Shown piece by piece: positions 1 to 7,609 of a DNA stretch of 7,609 nucleotides (the first letter of the stretch is position 1; each line of letters opens with the position of its first letter). The notes under the pieces were generated by a model, which was not told the origin of the DNA, made no database searches, and worked only from the letters and a program-made list of their open reading frames with translations. The translations under genes and the position numbers were made by a program. Source of the stretch: Candidatus Latescibacterota bacterium (GTDB lineage Bacteria > JAAXHH01 > JABIQT01); assembly GCA_018667995.1 (NCBI GenBank), contig JABIQT010000240.1, positions 1 through 7,609 on the forward strand, read 5' to 3'.

Positions 1-523
1 GATATTCGTACCCCACCTCATCATCCGGGTAGAACCGCAAAGCCTGATGATAACGGATTCCCCATGATATCCTCTCGTCTACGTAAGGTTCGATGAGCTG
101 AGCGCCCCACCATCCATGATCGGGTTTTGCCAGATTCAGCACGATGTCATGAACCAGACATGCCATCACCGTACGCTCGGGCTGATCGGTTGTTAGTGCA
201 TGATGGGCGCTCTGCAGGCAATGCCGCTGTGTACTGCGCGAGAAACGACATTCAAAGAAATCTGCGAGGGTCGGCTTATCAGGCAGATCCTTGAACTTTT
301 GCATTCGGTCGTCGAATACATGGCCAACGCCTTTGCGAAAGTGCTCTCTCGATTCACGAGGCTGGTTCTGCTGTTGACTGTCAGCCTGGGTAATCATCCC
401 CAACTGATCAATCATCTCGTGCTCCAGCGCTTCCGCCAGTGCTTCTGGCGCCATGGCGGCTACGGCAGCAGCCCCGCCGAGTTTTGCAAAGAAGACACGT
501 CGGTCCAGATCGAAATCCTGCAT
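1..523 (-). CDS. HD-domain protein, PhnZ/MIOX-like, with Tat-like signal; 3' end outside window
   Basis: 174 residues are visible from the ATG at 523-521, with no stop before the window edge, so the C-terminus is missing. Residues 8-16 (RRVFFAKLG) followed by an Ala-rich segment and ALA at 28-30 look like a twin-arginine signal with a cleavage site. A Gln-rich hydrophilic stretch follows at about 45-60. The HD region starts near residue 90: H101, then the H125-D126 pair (LVHDIVLN), H136 (PDHGWWGAQ) and H159 (IRYHQALRFY). The steps H101-H125 (24) and H136-H159 (23) match, from memory, the metal-ligand spacing of PhnZ, a mixed-valence diiron oxygenase related to myo-inositol oxygenase; the H125-H136 step is shorter than in PhnZ. 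The membership in the HD superfamily is well supported. Oxygenase rather than phosphohydrolase activity, and export, are inference. The start is fixed by a strong Shine-Dalgarno sequence. The gene lies 138 bases downstream of the kinase/lyase fusion on the same strand and may share its transcript. Confidence 0.8.
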   Translation of the reverse strand, partial: MQDFDLDRRVFFAKLGGAAAVAAMAPEALAEALEHEMIDQLGMITQADSQQQNQPRESREHFRKGVGHVFDDRMQKFKDLPDKPTLADFFECRFSRSTQRHCLQSAHHALTTDQPERTVMACLVHDIVLNLAKPDHGWWGAQLIEPYVDERISWGIRYHQALRFYPDDEVGYEY

Positions 524-527
524 GTAT

Positions 528-534
528 TCCTCCC
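528..534 (-). promoter_or_regulatory. Ribosome binding site of the HD-domain gene
   Basis: The minus strand reads GGGAGGA, four bases before the ATG at 523-521. This supports the start codon and shows that the gene can be translated independently of the upstream one. I see no convincing sigma-70 promoter in the 138-base gap 524-661, so it is open whether the gene has its own promoter or is read through from the fusion gene. Confidence 0.7.
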
Positions 535-661
535 TTTGGAAGAAGGGCAAACTATTGAAATAGATCTCGGTATCACTGTTCTTTCAGGAGTATCGTGTGT
601 TGCTGAATCTGATACGATTTCCTGAGGTCGGCCAGAAAAAAGTAAGACCGGGACCCGCTTT

Positions 662-3600
662 CTAAATCTGCACAAAATCTTCATGCAGGATTTTGGCCAG
701 TGTCGCAACCAGCCGATCGGCGTTTGCCTCACTAAATACCATAGGCGGCTTTATCTTAAGTACGTTATGCAGGGGCCCATCTGTGCTGATCAATATCCCA
801 TGGTCCTTCATCCTGTTTGCCACATAGGAAGCCTGCTCGCCTGCCGGCTCCTGGCTACTCCGATCCAGTACCAACTCAGCTCCCACAAAAAGCCCAAGCC
901 CTCGCACATCACCAATGATCTCATGCTTCGCCATCAGGCCACGCAGTCCATCAATCATGTGGTTGCCGACGTGCAGGGCGTTCTGCTGGAGGTGCTCGTC
1001 CTGTACCACATCCAGAACGGCTGTTCCTATGGCGCAGGAGACGGCATTACCCCCAAAAGTGTTGAAGTATTCCATCCCGTTGGCAAACGCATCGGCGATC
1101 GCTTCTGTGGTGACCACGGCACCCAGGGGATGGCCGTTACCTATAGGTTTACCAAGGGTGACGATATCGGGCACTACATTCTGGGACTCGAAACCCCAAA
1201 AGTGACTGCCTGGTCTTCCGAAGCCCACCTGGACCTCATCCGCGATGCATACCCCACCTGCCTCTCTAACCATGTGATAGGTAGCGTCGAGATAACCGTC
1301 GGGTAACACGACCTGACCGCCACATCCCAGGATCGACTCCGCTATAAAGCCGCACAGCTCCCTGGCCTGTTGGTGTATCTGATTGATGGCTGTCTGCACG
1401 TCGTCCGCATAGGATTCGGCGGCCTGGCGGCTGTAGCCTTTGAAACGACCCCGGTACGGGTCTGGCATAAGTGCTTTGTGAACCCGCGCTGGTAATCCCT
1501 GCCCCCCCGGACCGTCAAATTTGTAGGGGCTGAGTTCGATCAGCGAGGTCAGATTGCCATGGTAGGCTCCGTCGACTACGATCATATCGCGCCGTCCCGT
1601 ATAGGCTCTTGCCATGCGCAGCGCGAGATCATTGGCCTCGCTGCCCGAATTAACGAGAAAGCAGACATTCAGATCGGGTGGCATGGTTCCACAAAGACGT
1701 TCGGCGTATTGCACGAGGCTTTGGTGCAGATATCTGGTATTAGTATTCAGTACTGCCGCCTGCCTTTGGCCAGCTTGTACCACGCGCGGGTGGCAATGCC
1801 CCACATGGGGCACGTTGTTTACGGCGTCCAGATAACCATGCCCGACCTCGTCGAAAAGATACTGGCCGGCTCCACGTAAAATCTCTAATGGAGTTTCGTA
1901 CGAAATACTCAGCGACCTACCTAAGTGGCGTTGCCGAGACCGCAACAGGTCCGCCTTCGTACGTTCCTCCGGGGGAAAACGATCCTCTGGAACACCCACG
2001 ATCACGTTGGGGCCTGGCGCCAGGTTCAACCAGATCTGCCGGCGACTGGCGGCGCCAACCCCGGGGAATTCACCTTCTCTTCCCAACATATCTGTTACGA
2101 TCTGAAAGTGTAGGTGGGGAGGCCACCCCCCGTTCACTGTGTAGTCACCCAGCCAGCCAATCAAATCACCTTTCTGAACGGCCATCCCCTTCGACTTGCC
2201 ATCAAGAGACTTAATCGCAAGATGACCATAGAGTGTATAAAACGGTACATTGCCCTCGGTACGATGCTCGAGTATGATCGTAGGACCGTAGTCCAGAGGG
2301 TCCGTATTGTTACGATAGCTGTGAACGATGCCGTCAAGCGGCGCATAGACCGGGGATTCTGCCGGAAGAAAAAGATCGATCCCTAGATGAATGGTCCTTG
2401 TCTCGGGCATTTCATCGCTATCCACCGCAAATTGATCCGCCGTATACACTTGCCTGGCCTCATTATACCTGCCGATACCGACCTCGGCTCCAGCAGCACG
2501 CATACGACCAAACAGATCGTCCGTTAACTCGTGAACATCGTGGCGATCCTTTAACAAGGACAGTTCAAGGCTGCCGATACTTAAATCGAATACGAGAGAC
2601 TCTCGCAGGTCGTAATCGGGCCCCATTACCGGTGCAAATGCTCCACGGCAACTGTTGAGATAACTCATGATTTGCGCAGTCTGAGTGCAGGGAGGCAAAC
2701 CGCAGGCGTCACGGAATACGTACTGGGCCATATTCGCCGGCAGGCTTTCAAGATGCTGCAACAACTCCCATCCCGTACTCTCGCTCACCGAAAGGTATTG
2801 ATTGTCCGGTTCGTCTCTCTGCTGGGAGGCAGAAATAGCGACACTCATGCAGATCCGCATGCATGCCATATGATACAGGAGCCTGATCTCAAGCTCGGTA
2901 AGTTCAAATTCACGATGGTACCCCTCGACCACGCTCGCAGCCGCAGCCAGAGGATCCGATTTGCCCAGCATGACATAGGCGAGCGCCACTGCTAACTCAG
3001 CAATGGTATACGATTCGACCATGTCGCCGAAATCGATCAATCCAACCACGATCTTCTCCCATGTTTCAGTCTTGTTTTGCCGGGCGTCACCGATCAGCAC
3101 GTTGTGATCGTTGGCGTCATTATGTATCACGCTTCTGCGAAGCGACGATAGGCCTGGTACTACCTCATCTTCGTACCTGCGAAGAAATCCCGCGACCAAT
3201 TCCCGTTTATCTGGATCCGAAATATCCTGCAGTCCTTCCCGTACCACTTCGGGACCGTTATCGATGTTCCACTTTAGGGATCGCTGCGTGGCTGTATGTG
3301 TGAAACCTGTCAAAGCCCCTGTAACACCACCGAGAAATTCACCCAGATCGTTGAGCAGTGACTTTGTATGGGGATTCGTCTCTGCGAGTGGGATACCGGG
3401 GACATATGTGAGTAGGCGGACCATGTGAGCCCCCCCCCCTTCACCGAGGATTTCGCCGATGCTCTCACCCTCGCTCGTCGCAGTCACCGATGGCCAGATG
3501 CCGGTCTGGTGCTCTTTTCCCAATACCTCCATGGCCTGGTGTTGGAGATCGAGAATCGACCTGTCTTCGGCCGCGCTTGATATTTTGAGCACGAATGACT

Positions 3601-3748
3601 CGTTCGTATCCGTGCCAAGATGGAAGTTCTGATCTCGTTCGCTGGGCAGGGAAACGCAGCTCTGAAGGTGGATTCCGTATAGCCGGCCCACTAACTCGGT
3701 CGCTCCATCCACGGTCAGGTGGGGGCGATCTGCAGCGACAGTTGACAT
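662..3748 (-). CDS. Kinase - M23 peptidase - class III phospho-lyase fusion protein
   Basis: 1028 residues from the ATG at 3748, preceded by AGAGGAG at a 7-base distance. Three domains follow in order. (a) Residues about 12-350: APH/choline-kinase-like fold of the hydroxylysine kinase kind, with K55 (FVLKIS), the catalytic loop H209-x-D211-x4-N216 (VIHNDANDHN) and D239 in IDFGD. (b) About 450-555: an M23/LytM-type zinc peptidase with H454 and D458 (HLGID), H509 (LYGHL) and H545/H547 (PPHLHF), the full set of metal and catalytic positions. (c) About 605-1028: a fold-type I PLP enzyme of class III with the SGS phosphate-binding loop at 701-703, D837 in ADEVQVGFGR, the Schiff-base lysine K867 in GKPIGNGHPL and T897 in FNTFGGN. 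The lyase part closely resembles, from memory, human ETNPPL/PHYKPL (GMEYFNTFGGN, NVLKIKPPM), which split O-phosphoethanolamine or phosphohydroxylysine into aldehyde, ammonia and phosphate. Hence the likely activity is phosphorylation then elimination of an amino alcohol; the substrate is not determined. There is no signal peptide, so it is probably cytoplasmic. Automated annotation could call it simply an aminotransferase. Confidence 0.9.
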   Translation of the reverse strand: MSTVAADRPHLTVDGATELVGRLYGIHLQSCVSLPSERDQNFHLGTDTNESFVLKISSAAEDRSILDLQHQAMEVLGKEHQTGIWPSVTATSEGESIGEILGEGGGAHMVRLLTYVPGIPLAETNPHTKSLLNDLGEFLGGVTGALTGFTHTATQRSLKWNIDNGPEVVREGLQDISDPDKRELVAGFLRRYEDEVVPGLSSLRRSVIHNDANDHNVLIGDARQNKTETWEKIVVGLIDFGDMVESYTIAELAVALAYVMLGKSDPLAAAASVVEGYHREFELTELEIRLLYHMACMRICMSVAISASQQRDEPDNQYLSVSESTGWELLQHLESLPANMAQYVFRDACGLPPCTQTAQIMSYLNSCRGAFAPVMGPDYDLRESLVFDLSIGSLELSLLKDRHDVHELTDDLFGRMRAAGAEVGIGRYNEARQVYTADQFAVDSDEMPETRTIHLGIDLFLPAESPVYAPLDGIVHSYRNNTDPLDYGPTIILEHRTEGNVPFYTLYGHLAIKSLDGKSKGMAVQKGDLIGWLGDYTVNGGWPPHLHFQIVTDMLGREGEFPGVGAASRRQIWLNLAPGPNVIVGVPEDRFPPEERTKADLLRSRQRHLGRSLSISYETPLEILRGAGQYLFDEVGHGYLDAVNNVPHVGHCHPRVVQAGQRQAAVLNTNTRYLHQSLVQYAERLCGTMPPDLNVCFLVNSGSEANDLALRMARAYTGRRDMIVVDGAYHGNLTSLIELSPYKFDGPGGQGLPARVHKALMPDPYRGRFKGYSRQAAESYADDVQTAINQIHQQARELCGFIAESILGCGGQVVLPDGYLDATYHMVREAGGVCIADEVQVGFGRPGSHFWGFESQNVVPDIVTLGKPIGNGHPLGAVVTTEAIADAFANGMEYFNTFGGNAVSCAIGTAVLDVVQDEHLQQNALHVGNHMIDGLRGLMAKHEIIGDVRGLGLFVGAELVLDRSSQEPAGEQASYVANRMKDHGILISTDGPLHNVLKIKPPMVFSEANADRLVATLAKILHEDFVQI
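3430..3439 (-). repeat. Run of ten G residues inside the kinase coding sequence
   Basis: The plus strand has ten consecutive C, giving ten G in the coding strand. They encode Gly105-Gly107 and the first base of Ala108, between two beta strands before the motif RLLTYVPG. The tract is in the first third of the fusion gene; gain or loss of one base would shift the frame ahead of all catalytic residues except K55. It is a possible slippage (phase-variation) site, but equally a place where sequencing or assembly errors collect. As given, the frame is intact. Confidence 0.6.
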
Positions 3749-3755
3749 AGACGGG

Positions 3756-3762
3756 CTCCTCT
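3756..3762 (-). promoter_or_regulatory. Ribosome binding site deciding the start of the fusion gene
   Basis: The minus strand reads AGAGGAG, seven bases before the ATG at 3748-3746. The open frame extends 25 codons further, to a TTG at 3823, but that codon has no comparable Shine-Dalgarno sequence and the extra stretch overlaps the terminator hairpin, so the ATG is preferred. Confidence 0.75.
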
Positions 3763-3889: not shown

Positions 3890-6800
3890 CTACTTGAGCA
3901 GGATCATGCGCTGGGCGTCTCTGAAACCAGTGCTGCTGCTCAGTCGATACATGTATACGCCACTGGCCACGCCCTGACCTCGAACATTGGTCCCATTCCA
4001 GACTACAGAATAGCGACCGGCTGGCTTGACTTCATCCACCAGACGAATCACTTCCTGGCCGAGGATATTGTACACCGTGAGCGTCATGTGCGCCTGCCGG
4101 GGAACTTCGTAGGCAATTGTCGTGCTCGGATTGAACGGATTCGGACGATTGCCGGTCAATGCGAAGGTAGTCGGCAGGTCAGCCGATTTCGCGAGAGACT
4201 GGGTCACGACGCCGAAATTAACCAGAGCGGTGCCGGCATTTCGCTCGACCACGATCAATTGTGTCAATGATAACTGTGTGCCGTCAACCAGAGGGGTAAC
4301 CGGGATCAGCATCATGGGGACATCGCCGACTCCGAGGCCCTGGTCTGCCAAAAGACTATAAACGATGACACGCATCTTACCATCTTCGATCCGGTAGTCG
4401 AAGGCCATTCCTCCCGTGGCGCCTCCGAACTGCGGCGTACCAATTTCAAGACCTGCTGGATCGTATGTGAACTCAGCCTGAGCCCCTGCGATGAGACCAC
4501 TTGTGTTCAAATGTATGGGAATTGCCGTCTGGCCATCTTCAAGTGTGACCAACTCTCCCATGTTGACGGCTACTGGACCGCTCGCCACAGGCTTGCCAGG
4601 CGTCTCGACGAGAATGTCGAGAATCTCGTTTACCACACTGACCACATCCTCGACATTTACCTCATTGTCCGAATTGTGATCCGCCAGTGTACGCATGGTA
4701 TATCCGATAGAATCGTCAAGGATGCCTCTGACTAGTATCACGGCATCGAGCACGTTTATATCGTCATCAAGATTCATGTCCCCTGAGTATTTATACTGGA
4801 CACGGCCGTTTCGCACACCGACTGCCTGTTGCTCCCCTTGCGCGTTCCCAACGACTATACTTGAGAATGAAAGCTGGGTCTCCTCGTTCAGGTTGCCGTC
4901 CTCCATGTGTACGAGCAACGTGGCGATGCATATACCGTCTTCGCCATCGGTCGGAGCTATGGAATCGCCAGACACGCTAAACACTACAAAATGAATGGAA
5001 CTGTCTGTAAGTGCAACGGACACACTAAACCCAGGGATGGAGAGGGTATCCTCCACGCCGACCACCGTTGCAAGTGATGGATTATCTATGCGCAGCGTGC
5101 CCTGGAGGCCACCGATGTACTGGTCGGTCGGATTCTCTAGCTTGATCGGAATACGGGCAATATCACCCTGGTCTGCAAATACCTCATTGGTAGTTAGCAT
5201 TATTCCATTGAATATCTCTATTGACTCAAGGACCATACCGGATAACTGGTTGAATCCCGGACCGTCACCTACCTCGTTGAATCTGGAATAAATGGTCCGC
5301 TGGCCCCAGTTTGGATTCTGCCCTGGATCACCGCCTTCGATCTCTACTATGGCCTGATGCCCGGCATCTGCCACAAATCCTCTGTTGAATCCAGCCACTA
5401 CATCGACGGCGTTCACAAAGTCGTGGCCCTGACCATCCGAGGAAAAAACACTTCGGTCCCCGTTACTGTTCAGGTCGGCCACTAGTACGGCGCCATTATC
5501 GTGTGAACTGTCCGTATCGAGCATCAGTACATTGTTTTCCCACAGCGCTAAAGCGACTGGCTCGACGAGAGCGGTACCCGTGCCTTGTGAATTGTGTACC
5601 TGCAGAACTCGGTTTCCACTAGGGGATTCTGGAGTCGGATCAAATGGATCGACGCTGAACACCGAAGAACCAAATAGATCTGTCACGAAAATGTGACCGG
5701 TCAACTTGTTGAAGTCGATGTCCGAGGGATCACCGAAAAACGTGCCCACGCCACCTGAACCTATTTCGAGCCCACTCTCATCGAGTCCCGAGAGGATATT
5801 ACGATCCCCCGAATTCGGGTCGATGCGCAGTAGAGCAGGGAACGGATCGAAACCCGGGTGGTCAAATCCCACAGTCACGTAAATAGCCCCGTCATTTCCG
5901 ATTGTAATTCGGTCTATGTTGGTCAACGGAACACCCGCTCCGAAGTTACCGGACTCATCCGATACCATAGACCGGTCACCTGAATCTCGATCTACTCTCA
6001 ATACTCCCGGATATCCGGAATCTGTAACCAGATATGATCCACTTGGTTCAATAGATATGTCCCTGAGCTGAATGAATGATGGTCCGCCGCCCGTCCCATT
6101 GTCAGATAAAACCTGACGGTAGCCATCCTCGTATATGCGAATTACCTGATTGTTACCACCATCTGTAACTATCAGATTCTCCTCAAACTGATCAGACTGG
6201 CCATCGCCATCACCGTCGTTCTCTATATCTATCCGCACAATACGGTTATTCTCGCTATCGGCCACGAACAGAGCGTTCAGACCGGCGGCCAGTCCAGCTG
6301 GGCCGCTAAATCCACCGGGAATTAGCGTGGCAAACGAATGAGCCTCGGACTCAGGGGGATCGAAATTCACGACGACAATACGGTCATTGCCTGAATCGGT
6401 GATGATCAATTCCTCATCTCCAAGCGTCAAAACAGCTGTTGGATTGAGCAAACCTCCCACATCATTGACCGGGACCACTTCGGCATCGCCTCCGCCTAAC
6501 GGCACGCGAACAACGCGATCGTTGTTGGTATCGGCTATGTAGAGATGGGTATCACTCAACGACAATCCCCTGGCATCCCCCAAGCCTTGCTGTAACCCGG
6601 TAATAGGTAGTAAATCCGCCTCACCGGGAAGGGGGTTGGACGGTCCGCTACTGATTCCTACACGCACAATCCGGTTCAGCCCATCGGATATATAGAGTGT
6701 ATTGTCATCGGCCGCCAAACCCTCTGGTGCGGCAAGCGCCGGTGAGATATTTACCACCAATTCCTCTGTAACAAATGGAGGCTCTCCACTATTTGTATCA

Positions 6801-7609
6801 GAAGAGAGAATCCGGTCATTGCCACGATCAGCGATAAAGAGCCTGTCTTCGGTAACTGCTATGCCACGAGGGTCATTCAGGACGACCGGCACGCTCGCGA
6901 TTTCCAGGCCTACCAGTTGAGCTGTGCCACCTTCTTGATCCACGGCCAGAATTCTGTTATTGCCGGAATCCACGATTACCAGTGGTCCGTCGCTTCCGGC
7001 GAGCAAGCCGGTCAGTCTCGCATCTTCATTACTGTCAATCGCTAAATCGCTCACGCCTGTAACGTCGAGGATGGAGGTCGGCGGCAGACCACCATCGTCA
7101 AAAATCAAGATTCGAACTACCCTATCAGGATCTGTACCGGCGTCGGCGATGAACACTACATCTTGGTTGGCCGTGAGTCCCGTCGGCGACTGTAAGCCCG
7201 TAGTTAAATCTTCGGATAGGTCTAATTCTTCGGCATTGCTGGCATCGAAAGGGGCGAGAACGAGACGTCCGACACCTGCATCAGCAATGACCAACTCATC
7301 TCCCTCACCAGCCGGGAATACATCCGCCGGAACGAAACCTGCCAGATTCACACCATTGATTGCGAGAACCGAGGCGGTCGACGATTCGTTGAGTGGTGCC
7401 CGGACAATCCTGTTGTTACCTGCATCCGCTACGTACAGGTCGGTTCCCGCAACAGTGAGACCAAGAGGATTGGCCAAGGGTGGGGCTGGTAAACTATTCA
7501 GCACCATCACATGTGCCGGGTCGCCGTTGAGCGGCTTGACAACGATCCTGTTATTGCCGGAATCTGAAATGTACAGATCCGTTGGGGATACGGATAACCC
7601 CGTGGGCCC
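3890..7609 (-). CDS. Large secreted NHL-propeller / cohesin / dockerin protein with T9SS-type C-terminal tail; 5' end outside window
   Basis: 1239 residues are visible; the frame is open through the right edge, so the N-terminus and any signal peptide are missing. Numbering below starts at the first codon in the window. Residues 1-457 hold ten NHL-like blades with the signature (I/V)(A/S/T)DSGNNRIV, spaced mostly 45-51 residues. Residues 465-475 (DGDGDGQSDQF) resemble a calcium-binding thrombospondin-3 type loop. Residues 478-795 hold about six more divergent blades, several with SGDRxxxS turns. A cohesin-like domain spans about 800-938. A dockerin follows at about 940-1000 with two calcium loops, DMNLDDDINVLD and DHNSDNEVNVED. 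A second cohesin-like domain covers about 1005-1138. Residues about 1146-1239 form a FlgD-Ig/type A sorting domain (NPFNPSTTI, YNILGQEV, GVASGVYMYRL, ending ILLK), which in known systems directs type IX secretion and surface attachment. A cell-surface or extracellular binding protein is the likely role; no catalytic residues are evident and the ligand is unknown. Confidence 0.88.
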   Translation of the reverse strand, partial: GPTGLSVSPTDLYISDSGNNRIVVKPLNGDPAHVMVLNSLPAPPLANPLGLTVAGTDLYVADAGNNRIVRAPLNESSTASVLAINGVNLAGFVPADVFPAGEGDELVIADAGVGRLVLAPFDASNAEELDLSEDLTTGLQSPTGLTANQDVVFIADAGTDPDRVVRILIFDDGGLPPTSILDVTGVSDLAIDSNEDARLTGLLAGSDGPLVIVDSGNNRILAVDQEGGTAQLVGLEIASVPVVLNDPRGIAVTEDRLFIADRGNDRILSSDTNSGEPPFVTEELVVNISPALAAPEGLAADDNTLYISDGLNRIVRVGISSGPSNPLPGEADLLPITGLQQGLGDARGLSLSDTHLYIADTNNDRVVRVPLGGGDAEVVPVNDVGGLLNPTAVLTLGDEELIITDSGNDRIVVVNFDPPESEAHSFATLIPGGFSGPAGLAAGLNALFVADSENNRIVRIDIENDGDGDGQSDQFEENLIVTDGGNNQVIRIYEDGYRQVLSDNGTGGGPSFIQLRDISIEPSGSYLVTDSGYPGVLRVDRDSGDRSMVSDESGNFGAGVPLTNIDRITIGNDGAIYVTVGFDHPGFDPFPALLRIDPNSGDRNILSGLDESGLEIGSGGVGTFFGDPSDIDFNKLTGHIFVTDLFGSSVFSVDPFDPTPESPSGNRVLQVHNSQGTGTALVEPVALALWENNVLMLDTDSSHDNGAVLVADLNSNGDRSVFSSDGQGHDFVNAVDVVAGFNRGFVADAGHQAIVEIEGGDPGQNPNWGQRTIYSRFNEVGDGPGFNQLSGMVLESIEIFNGIMLTTNEVFADQGDIARIPIKLENPTDQYIGGLQGTLRIDNPSLATVVGVEDTLSIPGFSVSVALTDSSIHFVVFSVSGDSIAPTDGEDGICIATLLVHMEDGNLNEETQLSFSSIVVGNAQGEQQAVGVRNGRVQYKYSGDMNLDDDINVLDAVILVRGILDDSIGYTMRTLADHNSDNEVNVEDVVSVVNEILDILVETPGKPVASGPVAVNMGELVTLEDGQTAIPIHLNTSGLIAGAQAEFTYDPAGLEIGTPQFGGATGGMAFDYRIEDGKMRVIVYSLLADQGLGVGDVPMMLIPVTPLVDGTQLSLTQLIVVERNAGTALVNFGVVTQSLAKSADLPTTFALTGNRPNPFNPSTTIAYEVPRQAHMTLTVYNILGQEVIRLVDEVKPAGRYSVVWNGTNVRGQGVASGVYMYRLSSSTGFRDAQRMILLK
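4610..4792 (-). other. Dockerin type I module within the large secreted protein
   Basis: Two F-hand-like calcium loops with Asp/Asn at positions 1, 3, 5 and 12 (DMNLDDDINVLD and DHNSDNEVNVED), each followed by a hydrophobic helix (AVILVRGIL and VVSVVNEIL). In cellulosomes dockerins bind cohesins. Here the module sits between two cohesin-like domains of the same chain, so pairing within or between copies of this protein is possible but not shown. Confidence 0.75.
5225..6178 (-). repeat. Divergent propeller array 2, about six blades
   Basis: Blade cores begin near window residues 481, 528, 578, 642, 696 and 746 of the encoded protein (for example VTDGGNNQV, VTDSGYPGV, VTDLFGSSV, VADAGHQAI). 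They lack the uniform NNRI ending of array 1 and instead share GDRSMVS, GDRNILS and GDRSVFS turns. Six blades would make one complete propeller. The array is separated from array 1 by the Asp-rich loop. Confidence 0.6.
6239..7609 (-). repeat. NHL repeat array 1, ten regular blades
   Basis: Blade signatures begin at window residues 14, 60, 108, 154, 212, 259, 307, 358, 403 and 449 of the encoded protein. The best copies read DSGNNRI or DAGNNRI. The similarity is visible in the DNA too: ttattgccggaatc occurs near 6957 and 7551, and related variants near 6388 and 6815. Ten blades exceed one standard six-bladed NHL propeller, so at least two propellers are implied, the first starting outside the window. 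Confidence 0.8.

What the first reader, a model, noticed from the sequence alone, without database searches (positions are those of the whole stretch)
662..3748. Kinase and phospho-lyase joined in one chain: a predicted two-step amino-alcohol degradation enzyme
The N-terminal kinase has a complete catalytic loop (H209, D211, N216, D239) and the C-terminal PLP domain has the Schiff-base lysine K867 with strong AGXT2L-type motifs. In animals hydroxylysine kinase and the phospholyases PHYKPL/ETNPPL are separate proteins acting in sequence, so the fusion suggests that the phosphorylated amino alcohol is passed from one domain to the other. Bacterial fusions of this kind are, as far as I recall, known from genome surveys but little characterised. 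The substrate (ethanolamine, hydroxylysine or another compound) is open.
Basis: partly seen in the sequence, partly recalled or inferred. Interest (0 to 1): 0.6.

Follow-up and report, generated by a model that had tools for sequence, protein, structure and literature searches.

The report
Three-domain kinase–M23–phospho-lyase fusion enzyme
This is an intact bacterial enzyme in which a small-molecule kinase and a vitamin-B6 phospho-lyase, the two steps animals use to break down hydroxylysine, are joined in one chain; the family is widespread and already catalogued, but the chain also carries a third, overlooked zinc-hydrolase domain whose job nobody has explained.

Summary
Window 662-3748 on the minus strand encodes one intact 1028-residue protein: an APH-type kinase, then a class-III PLP domain whose closest solved relatives are human O-phosphoethanolamine phospho-lyase (52% identity) and the Arthrobacter phospholyase A1RDF1.

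A complete M23 (LytM-type) zinc-peptidase domain sits between the other two. Its five catalytic histidine/aspartate positions are kept in 96 of 97 homologues, and it is conserved nearly as strongly as the lyase.

The protein is a full-length member of a catalogued family (NCBIfam PRK06148), found across many phyla. Fusion evidence for this kinase/lyase pair is already tied to the 2012 discovery of the animal enzymes.

Substrate: most likely 5-hydroxylysine (inferred). In Latescibacterota relatives the gene sits two genes from L-piperidine-6-carboxylate dehydrogenase, the next step. Alphaproteobacterial copies sit beside Lrp regulators and amino-acid transporters. A discrete kinase+lyase pair on a Klebsiella plasmid sits beside a lysine/arginine/ornithine transporter. 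The window's own genome shows no such dehydrogenase.

Verdict: a new member of a known kind, with one genuine puzzle, the cytoplasmic M23 domain.

The parts
662..3748 (-). Gene for the three-domain protein (1028 aa, stop codon 662-664)
   Evidence: Single ORF without internal stop; full-length match to NCBIfam NF004799 PRK06148, 1280.7 bits against cut-off 1128
3756..3762 (-). Shine-Dalgarno AGAGGAG, 7 nt before the ATG at 3748
   Evidence: Read directly from the sequence
2939..3637 (-). APH-type kinase domain, residues 38-270 (kinase region extends to about residue 345)
   Evidence: Pfam PF01636 1.2e-17; PRK06148 positions 1-349 match residues 1-358
3101..3124 (-). Kinase catalytic loop HNDANDHN, residues 209-216
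   Evidence: D211 and N216 97/97; H209 H70/Y25/Q2
3032..3034 (-). Kinase metal-binding D239 (IDFGD)
   Evidence: 97/97
1994..2488 (-). M23 (LytM-type) metallopeptidase domain with its upstream GRYxExR..Y motif, residues 421-585; Pfam core 453-551 = 2096-2392
   Evidence: Pfam PF01551 3.5e-14; AlphaFold model of 361-592, pLDDT 92.3; VIA-align Z up to 13.5 to lysostaphin and EnvC LytM domains; 45 Foldseek hits at E<=0.001, nearly all named M23/LytM structures
2375..2389 (-). M23 zinc motif 1, H454-x-x-x-D458
   Evidence: 96/97 each
2222..2224 (-). M23 catalytic H509 (YGHL)
   Evidence: 96/97
2108..2116 (-). M23 zinc motif 2, H545-x-H547
   Evidence: 96/97 each
683..1960 (-). PLP phospho-lyase domain, residues 597-1022
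   Evidence: Pfam PF00202 2.8e-74; 6tor human ETNPPL 494.7 bits, Z 58.8, rmsd 1.3, 52% identity
1148..1150 (-). Schiff-base lysine K867
   Evidence: 96/97, the remaining row gapped

Best explanation
A cytosolic catabolic enzyme for a hydroxylated amino acid with an H2N-CH2-CH(OH)- type moiety, most likely 5-hydroxylysine. Step 1 (inferred from fold and intact residues): the kinase transfers phosphate from ATP/GTP to the hydroxyl. Step 2 (inferred; strongest support, from homology, tree, structure and lyase-specific residues): the PLP domain eliminates ammonia and phosphate, giving an aldehyde (2-aminoadipate semialdehyde if the substrate is hydroxylysine), which a separate dehydrogenase oxidises where one is present. 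Step 0 (inferred, weakest): the M23 domain keeps a complete zinc hydrolase site and probably cleaves an amide bond that releases the amino acid, for example from a small peptide or conjugate, before the kinase acts. Confidence is about 0.9 in kinase plus phospho-lyase, about 0.5 in hydroxylysine, and about 0.3 in the amide-releasing role of M23. The score below is for kinase plus phospho-lyase acting on an amino-acid-type substrate.
For: Full-length family match. Lyase nearest to ETNPPL and A1RDF1 by sequence, Foldseek and VIA-align, 58.8 and 52.1 against 51.0 for the next. Tree: lyases apart from transaminases at 100/100; ETNPPL, A1RDF1 and the fusion in one 52-row clade at 99/99. Positions R605, N644, N645, R672, F895 and K998 are invariant in all 52 lyases including both characterised ones and absent or rare in 8 transaminases. 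Kinase D211, N216, D239 invariant. M23 ligands 96/97 and 18.8% near-invariant columns, against lyase 20.4% and kinase 4.4%. Substrate: fusion, a PhyH-like gene and L-piperidine-6-carboxylate dehydrogenase are neighbours in at least 9 genomes of one family of the window's order. In one proteobacterial set 13/15 fusion genomes have that dehydrogenase against 53/184 others, Fisher p 1.4e-5. Lrp/AsnC regulator or family-3 amino-acid binding protein beside the gene in alphaproteobacteria. Discrete kinase+lyase pair beside a lysine/arginine/ornithine ABC transporter on a Klebsiella plasmid.
Against: No biochemistry. The dehydrogenase was not found in the window's own genome at E<=1e-100 (85% complete) and is missing from 8 of 10 Chloroflexota fusion genomes (association p 0.096). 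The syntenic case is a single lineage. Outside it the gene usually stands alone, with no recurrent operon. The co-occurrence test ignores relatedness and genome size. Other transporter types and a glutamine-synthetase-like gene occur beside some copies, so substrates may vary. No M23 enzyme known to me acts in the cytosol.
Confidence: 0.7

Rival explanations
1. The same chemistry on ethanolamine: ethanolamine is phosphorylated and phosphoethanolamine is split to acetaldehyde, ammonia and phosphate.
For: The nearest solved relative is the human phosphoethanolamine enzyme, 494.7 bits and 52% identity; A1RDF1, the second nearest, is also a phospholyase.
Against: Neighbours are amino-acid binding proteins, Lrp regulators and 2-aminoadipate-semialdehyde (piperidine-6-carboxylate) dehydrogenase. 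Human PHYKPL could not be included in the tree, so closeness to ETNPPL does not separate the two substrates.
Confidence: 0.2
2. The lyase domain is an ordinary omega-transaminase, and the kinase is fused for another reason.
For: Shared class-III fold and Schiff-base lysine; NCBIfam lists many transaminase models as secondary hits.
Against: All transaminase models shown score far below their cut-offs. The tree separates lyases from transaminases at 100/100, and lyase-specific residues are present.
Confidence: 0.04
3. The M23 domain is not a working hydrolase but a structural spacer or docking module between kinase and lyase.
For: Some relatives keep kinase and lyase without a recognisable M23: the PRK06149 type, a haloarchaeal 778-aa fusion, a proteobacterial 775-aa fusion, and discrete pairs. 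LytM domains with non-catalytic roles are known (EnvC is an amidase activator, title).
Against: All five catalytic positions are kept in 96/97 sequences from many phyla, and the domain is about as constrained as the lyase and much more than the kinase. A spacer would not need this.
Confidence: 0.25

Closest known systems
NCBIfam NF004799 / PRK06148 (curated name 'hypothetical protein')
   Same: Full-length collinear match, residues 1-1023, 1280.7 bits over the 1128 cut-off
   Different: Nothing structural; the family has no assigned function
Animal hydroxylysine kinase (HYKK) + 5-phosphohydroxylysine phospho-lyase (PHYKPL) and ethanolamine-phosphate phospho-lyase (ETNPPL, PDB 6tor)
   Same: Same two predicted reactions; lyase 52% identical to ETNPPL, Z 58.8
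Arthrobacter phospholyase A1RDF1 (PDB 5g4i)
   Same: PLP phospho-lyase fold and lyase-specific residues
   Different: Solved as a 446-aa single-domain protein; groups with discrete bacterial lyases rather than with the fused ones
NCBIfam NF004800 / PRK06149
   Same: Kinase and lyase fused in one chain
   Different: Middle domain not recognised as M23 by Pfam and lacking the zinc motifs on reading its sequence; a separate clade; the window scores 763.9, below its 973 cut-off
M23 / LytM peptidases (lysostaphin, LytM, EnvC LytM domain)
   Same: Fold (Z up to 13.5) and complete HxxxD + HxH site
   Different: Those are exported cell-wall enzymes or regulators; here the domain sits inside a chain with ATP- and PLP-dependent domains and no visible signal peptide

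Membership tests
PRK06148 (NF004799) | Whole-protein score above the curated cut-off of 1128 bits | tested here: met
   1280.7 bits, residues 1-1023 against positions 1-1010
PRK06149 (NF004800) | Whole-protein score above 973 bits | tested here: not met
   763.9 bits
PLP ammonio-phospho-lyases (ETNPPL/PHYKPL/A1RDF1) | Clade with characterised phospho-lyases, apart from transaminases | tested here: met
   100/100 and 99/99 branches
PLP ammonio-phospho-lyases (ETNPPL/PHYKPL/A1RDF1) | Schiff-base lysine and lyase-specific residues | tested here: met
   K867; R605, N644, N645, R672, F895, K998 invariant in 52 lyases
PLP ammonio-phospho-lyases (ETNPPL/PHYKPL/A1RDF1) | Release of ammonia and phosphate from a phosphorylated amino alcohol | not testable with these tools
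   Needs enzyme assay
Class-III omega-transaminases | Score above a transaminase equivalog cut-off; grouping with transaminases | tested here: not met
   Best transaminase model 261.7 against 574; tree
PbfA, (R)-1-hydroxy-2-aminoethylphosphonate ammonia-lyase (NF049939) | Score above 525 bits | tested here: not met
   195.7 bits
APH-type small-molecule kinases | Catalytic D and N, metal-binding D, ATP-site K | tested here: met
   D211, N216, D239 97/97; K55 invariant in 45 rows; Pfam APH above cut-off
Hydroxylysine kinase (HYKK) proper | Grouping with animal HYKK; hydroxylysine phosphorylation | not tested
   No solved relative of the kinase region, so no reference sequence was on hand
M23 metallopeptidases | HxxxD and HxH zinc/catalytic motifs | tested here: met
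   H454, D458, H509, H545, H547 conserved 96/97
M23 metallopeptidases | LytM fold | tested here: met
M23 metallopeptidases | Export and action on peptidoglycan or other extracellular peptides | tested here: inconclusive
   The N-terminus MSTVAADRPHLTVDG... runs into the kinase with no hydrophobic signal stretch on reading the sequence; no signal predictor was run

The most novel reading that the evidence does not exclude
A three-active-site catabolic enzyme in which a cytosolic zinc M23 hydrolase releases a hydroxylated amino acid from a peptide or conjugate, the kinase phosphorylates it, and the PLP domain eliminates ammonia and phosphate. This would be an unrecognised intracellular, metabolic role for a fold otherwise known from cell-wall hydrolases.
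Probability: 0.3. Interest if true: 0.55.

Novelty: new member of a known kind. Interest (0 to 1): 0.35.

Why it matters
The kinase/lyase fusion itself is ordinary for bacteria and already catalogued. What could matter is that a family present in many phyla still carries the name 'hypothetical protein', that its context points to bacterial hydroxylysine breakdown by the animal-type phospho route, and that it contains a nearly fully conserved M23 zinc site in what looks like a cytosolic metabolic enzyme. That makes a concrete question testable: what does the M23 domain hydrolyse?

Tried and rejected
Omega-transaminase reading: rejected by profile cut-offs, tree and residues. PbfA: far below cut-off. 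Frameshift or assembly fusion: rejected, because the same architecture is found full-length over the cut-off in 14 of 16 genomes of the phylum and in many other phyla. Claim that the animal lyase arose from inside the fused bacterial clade: human ETNPPL nests there in two trees, but a tree holding the fused rows together without ETNPPL is not rejected (AU p 0.844), so it is not claimed. A recurrent operon outside Latescibacterota was looked for in 80 + 28 loci and not found. The 2012 primary paper is not held; paper searches for the three-domain protein found nothing about it. Structure searches with the full model covered the lyase only, so the M23 region was folded and searched alone; the kinase region was not folded alone, and its sequence search found no solved relative.

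Full report
Observation. The finding lies on the minus strand. Window 662-3748 reads as one ORF of 1028 residues from an ATG at 3748, with AGAGGAG seven bases before the ATG. Pfam finds three domains, not two: APH kinase 38-270, Peptidase_M23 453-551 and Aminotran_3 619-1021. The whole protein matches NCBIfam PRK06148 end to end at 1280.7 bits against a cut-off of 1128; NCBI's name for that family is 'hypothetical protein'.

Where it occurs. The window lies in a 6.06 Mb, 85%-complete assembly. A genome of the same order (G009, contig C47 of 78,332 bases) matches a record titled Candidatus Latescibacterota, so the window is very probably from that phylum. The family model is over its cut-off in 14 of 16 genomes of the phylum. 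Frequencies over the cut-off elsewhere: 6/150 genomes in one phylum-wide proteobacterial draw, 15/199 in a proteobacterial order and 10/201 in Chloroflexota. Sinorhizobium meliloti pSymB carries a 47%-identical copy.

Lyase. By sequence the lyase domain is closest to human ETNPPL (6tor, 494.7 bits), then Arthrobacter A1RDF1 (5g4i, 315.1), then dialkylglycine decarboxylase (204). The AlphaFold model of the full protein (pLDDT 89.7, pTM 0.88) ranks the same two enzymes first in the PDB (Z 58.8 and 52.1 against 51.0 for the next). In a 63-row tree all lyases separate from transaminases at 100/100, and a 99/99 clade joins the fused lyases, ETNPPL, A1RDF1 and the lyases of discrete pairs. Positions R605, N644, N645, R672, F895 and K998 are invariant in 52 lyases including both characterised enzymes, and absent or rare in eight transaminases. 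Whether the animal enzyme arose within the fused clade is unresolved (AU p 0.844 for the alternative).

M23 domain. H454, D458, H509, H545 and H547 are kept in 96 of 97 homologues; the exception (L115) deviates at all five. The fraction of near-invariant columns is 18.8% for M23, 20.4% for the lyase and 4.4% for the kinase. Folded alone (pLDDT 92.3) it matches M23/LytM structures: Z 13.5 to lysostaphin and EnvC, and 45 Foldseek hits at E<=0.001, nearly all named M23/LytM proteins. Relatives show the domain is separable. PRK06149-type fusions have kinase and lyase but no Pfam M23 and no zinc motifs in the middle region. A haloarchaeal 778-aa and a proteobacterial 775-aa fusion lack it. Discrete adjacent kinase and lyase genes exist on plasmids of Klebsiella, Azospirillum, Rhodococcus, Paracoccus and S. 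meliloti. The strong constraint argues for a working active site in this subfamily. What it cleaves is inference; release of the amino acid from an amide is the simplest proposal.

Substrate. In one family of the window's order, the fusion, a PhyH-like gene and a dehydrogenase are neighbours in at least nine genomes. The dehydrogenase is L-piperidine-6-carboxylate dehydrogenase, 780 bits over a 730 cut-off. That enzyme oxidises 2-aminoadipate semialdehyde, which is what a 5-phosphohydroxylysine phospho-lyase produces (established pathway knowledge; HYKK/PHYKPL pathway described in PMC5200902). In a proteobacterial order 13/15 fusion genomes against 53/184 others have this dehydrogenase (p 1.4e-5); in Chloroflexota the numbers are 2/10 and 9/191 (p 0.096). 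These tests do not correct for relatedness or genome size. Among 30 fusion genomes from many phyla, 20 had a strong full-length dehydrogenase match and one more a partial one. The window's own genome showed none at E<=1e-100. Alphaproteobacterial copies sit beside Lrp/AsnC regulators and family-3 amino-acid binding proteins, and a Klebsiella plasmid pair sits beside a lysine/arginine/ornithine transporter. All of this favours an amino acid, hydroxylysine first. Ethanolamine remains possible, and different members may use different substrates.

Comparison with what is known. The kinase/lyase fusion is not new: a 2025 review says gene fusions can reveal functions even when both partners are uncharacterised, and the 2012 hydroxylysine kinase/ammoniophospholyase paper stands among that passage's references (PMC12138971). 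I recall that paper using bacterial fusions but could not read it. The full three-domain arrangement is captured by PRK06148. What I could not find in the papers held here is any account of the M23 domain's role.

Verdict. Real, intact, correctly read in outline, and an ordinary member of a widespread catalogued family. The unexplained part worth a bench test is the conserved M23 active site.

Noticed in passing
window 3890-7609 (-): Incomplete (cut by the contig end) large protein with NHL repeats, a dockerin-like stretch, a weak cohesin match and a C-terminal FlgD-Ig / sorting-type domain, i.e. a likely secreted surface protein upstream of the fusion gene. Not conserved beside the fusion in relatives.
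   Followed up: partly
window 2-550 (-): Incomplete ORF with a sub-threshold HD-domain match (E 0.014) and an N-terminal RRVFFAKLGG stretch resembling a twin-arginine signal; directly downstream of the fusion gene.
   Followed up: no
L121 13253-16183 (-): On S. meliloti pSymB a PRK06149-type kinase-lyase fusion lies two genes from a PRK06148-type three-domain gene; its middle domain has lost the M23 motifs.
   Followed up: partly
L122 3959-10375: Klebsiella pneumoniae plasmid: lysine/arginine/ornithine ABC transporter, GntR regulator, kinase, lyase and EamA exporter in a row, near yersiniabactin genes; 39 Klebsiella plasmid records match the kinase/M23 query.
   Followed up: partly
L140 1489-3567 (-): A proteobacterial ORF matching only the M23 and lyase part of the family (profile 331-1011, 692 aa), apparently without the kinase.
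   Followed up: no
L115 7929-10994: A Caldilineaceae copy whose M23 motifs are all altered and whose M23 match is weak (31 bits) while kinase and lyase are intact.
   Followed up: partly
L119, L123: A glutamine-synthetase-family gene lies close to the fusion in both Paracoccus seriniphilus and the haloarchaeon Natribaculum, hinting at a gamma-glutamyl conjugate in some lineages.
   Followed up: no
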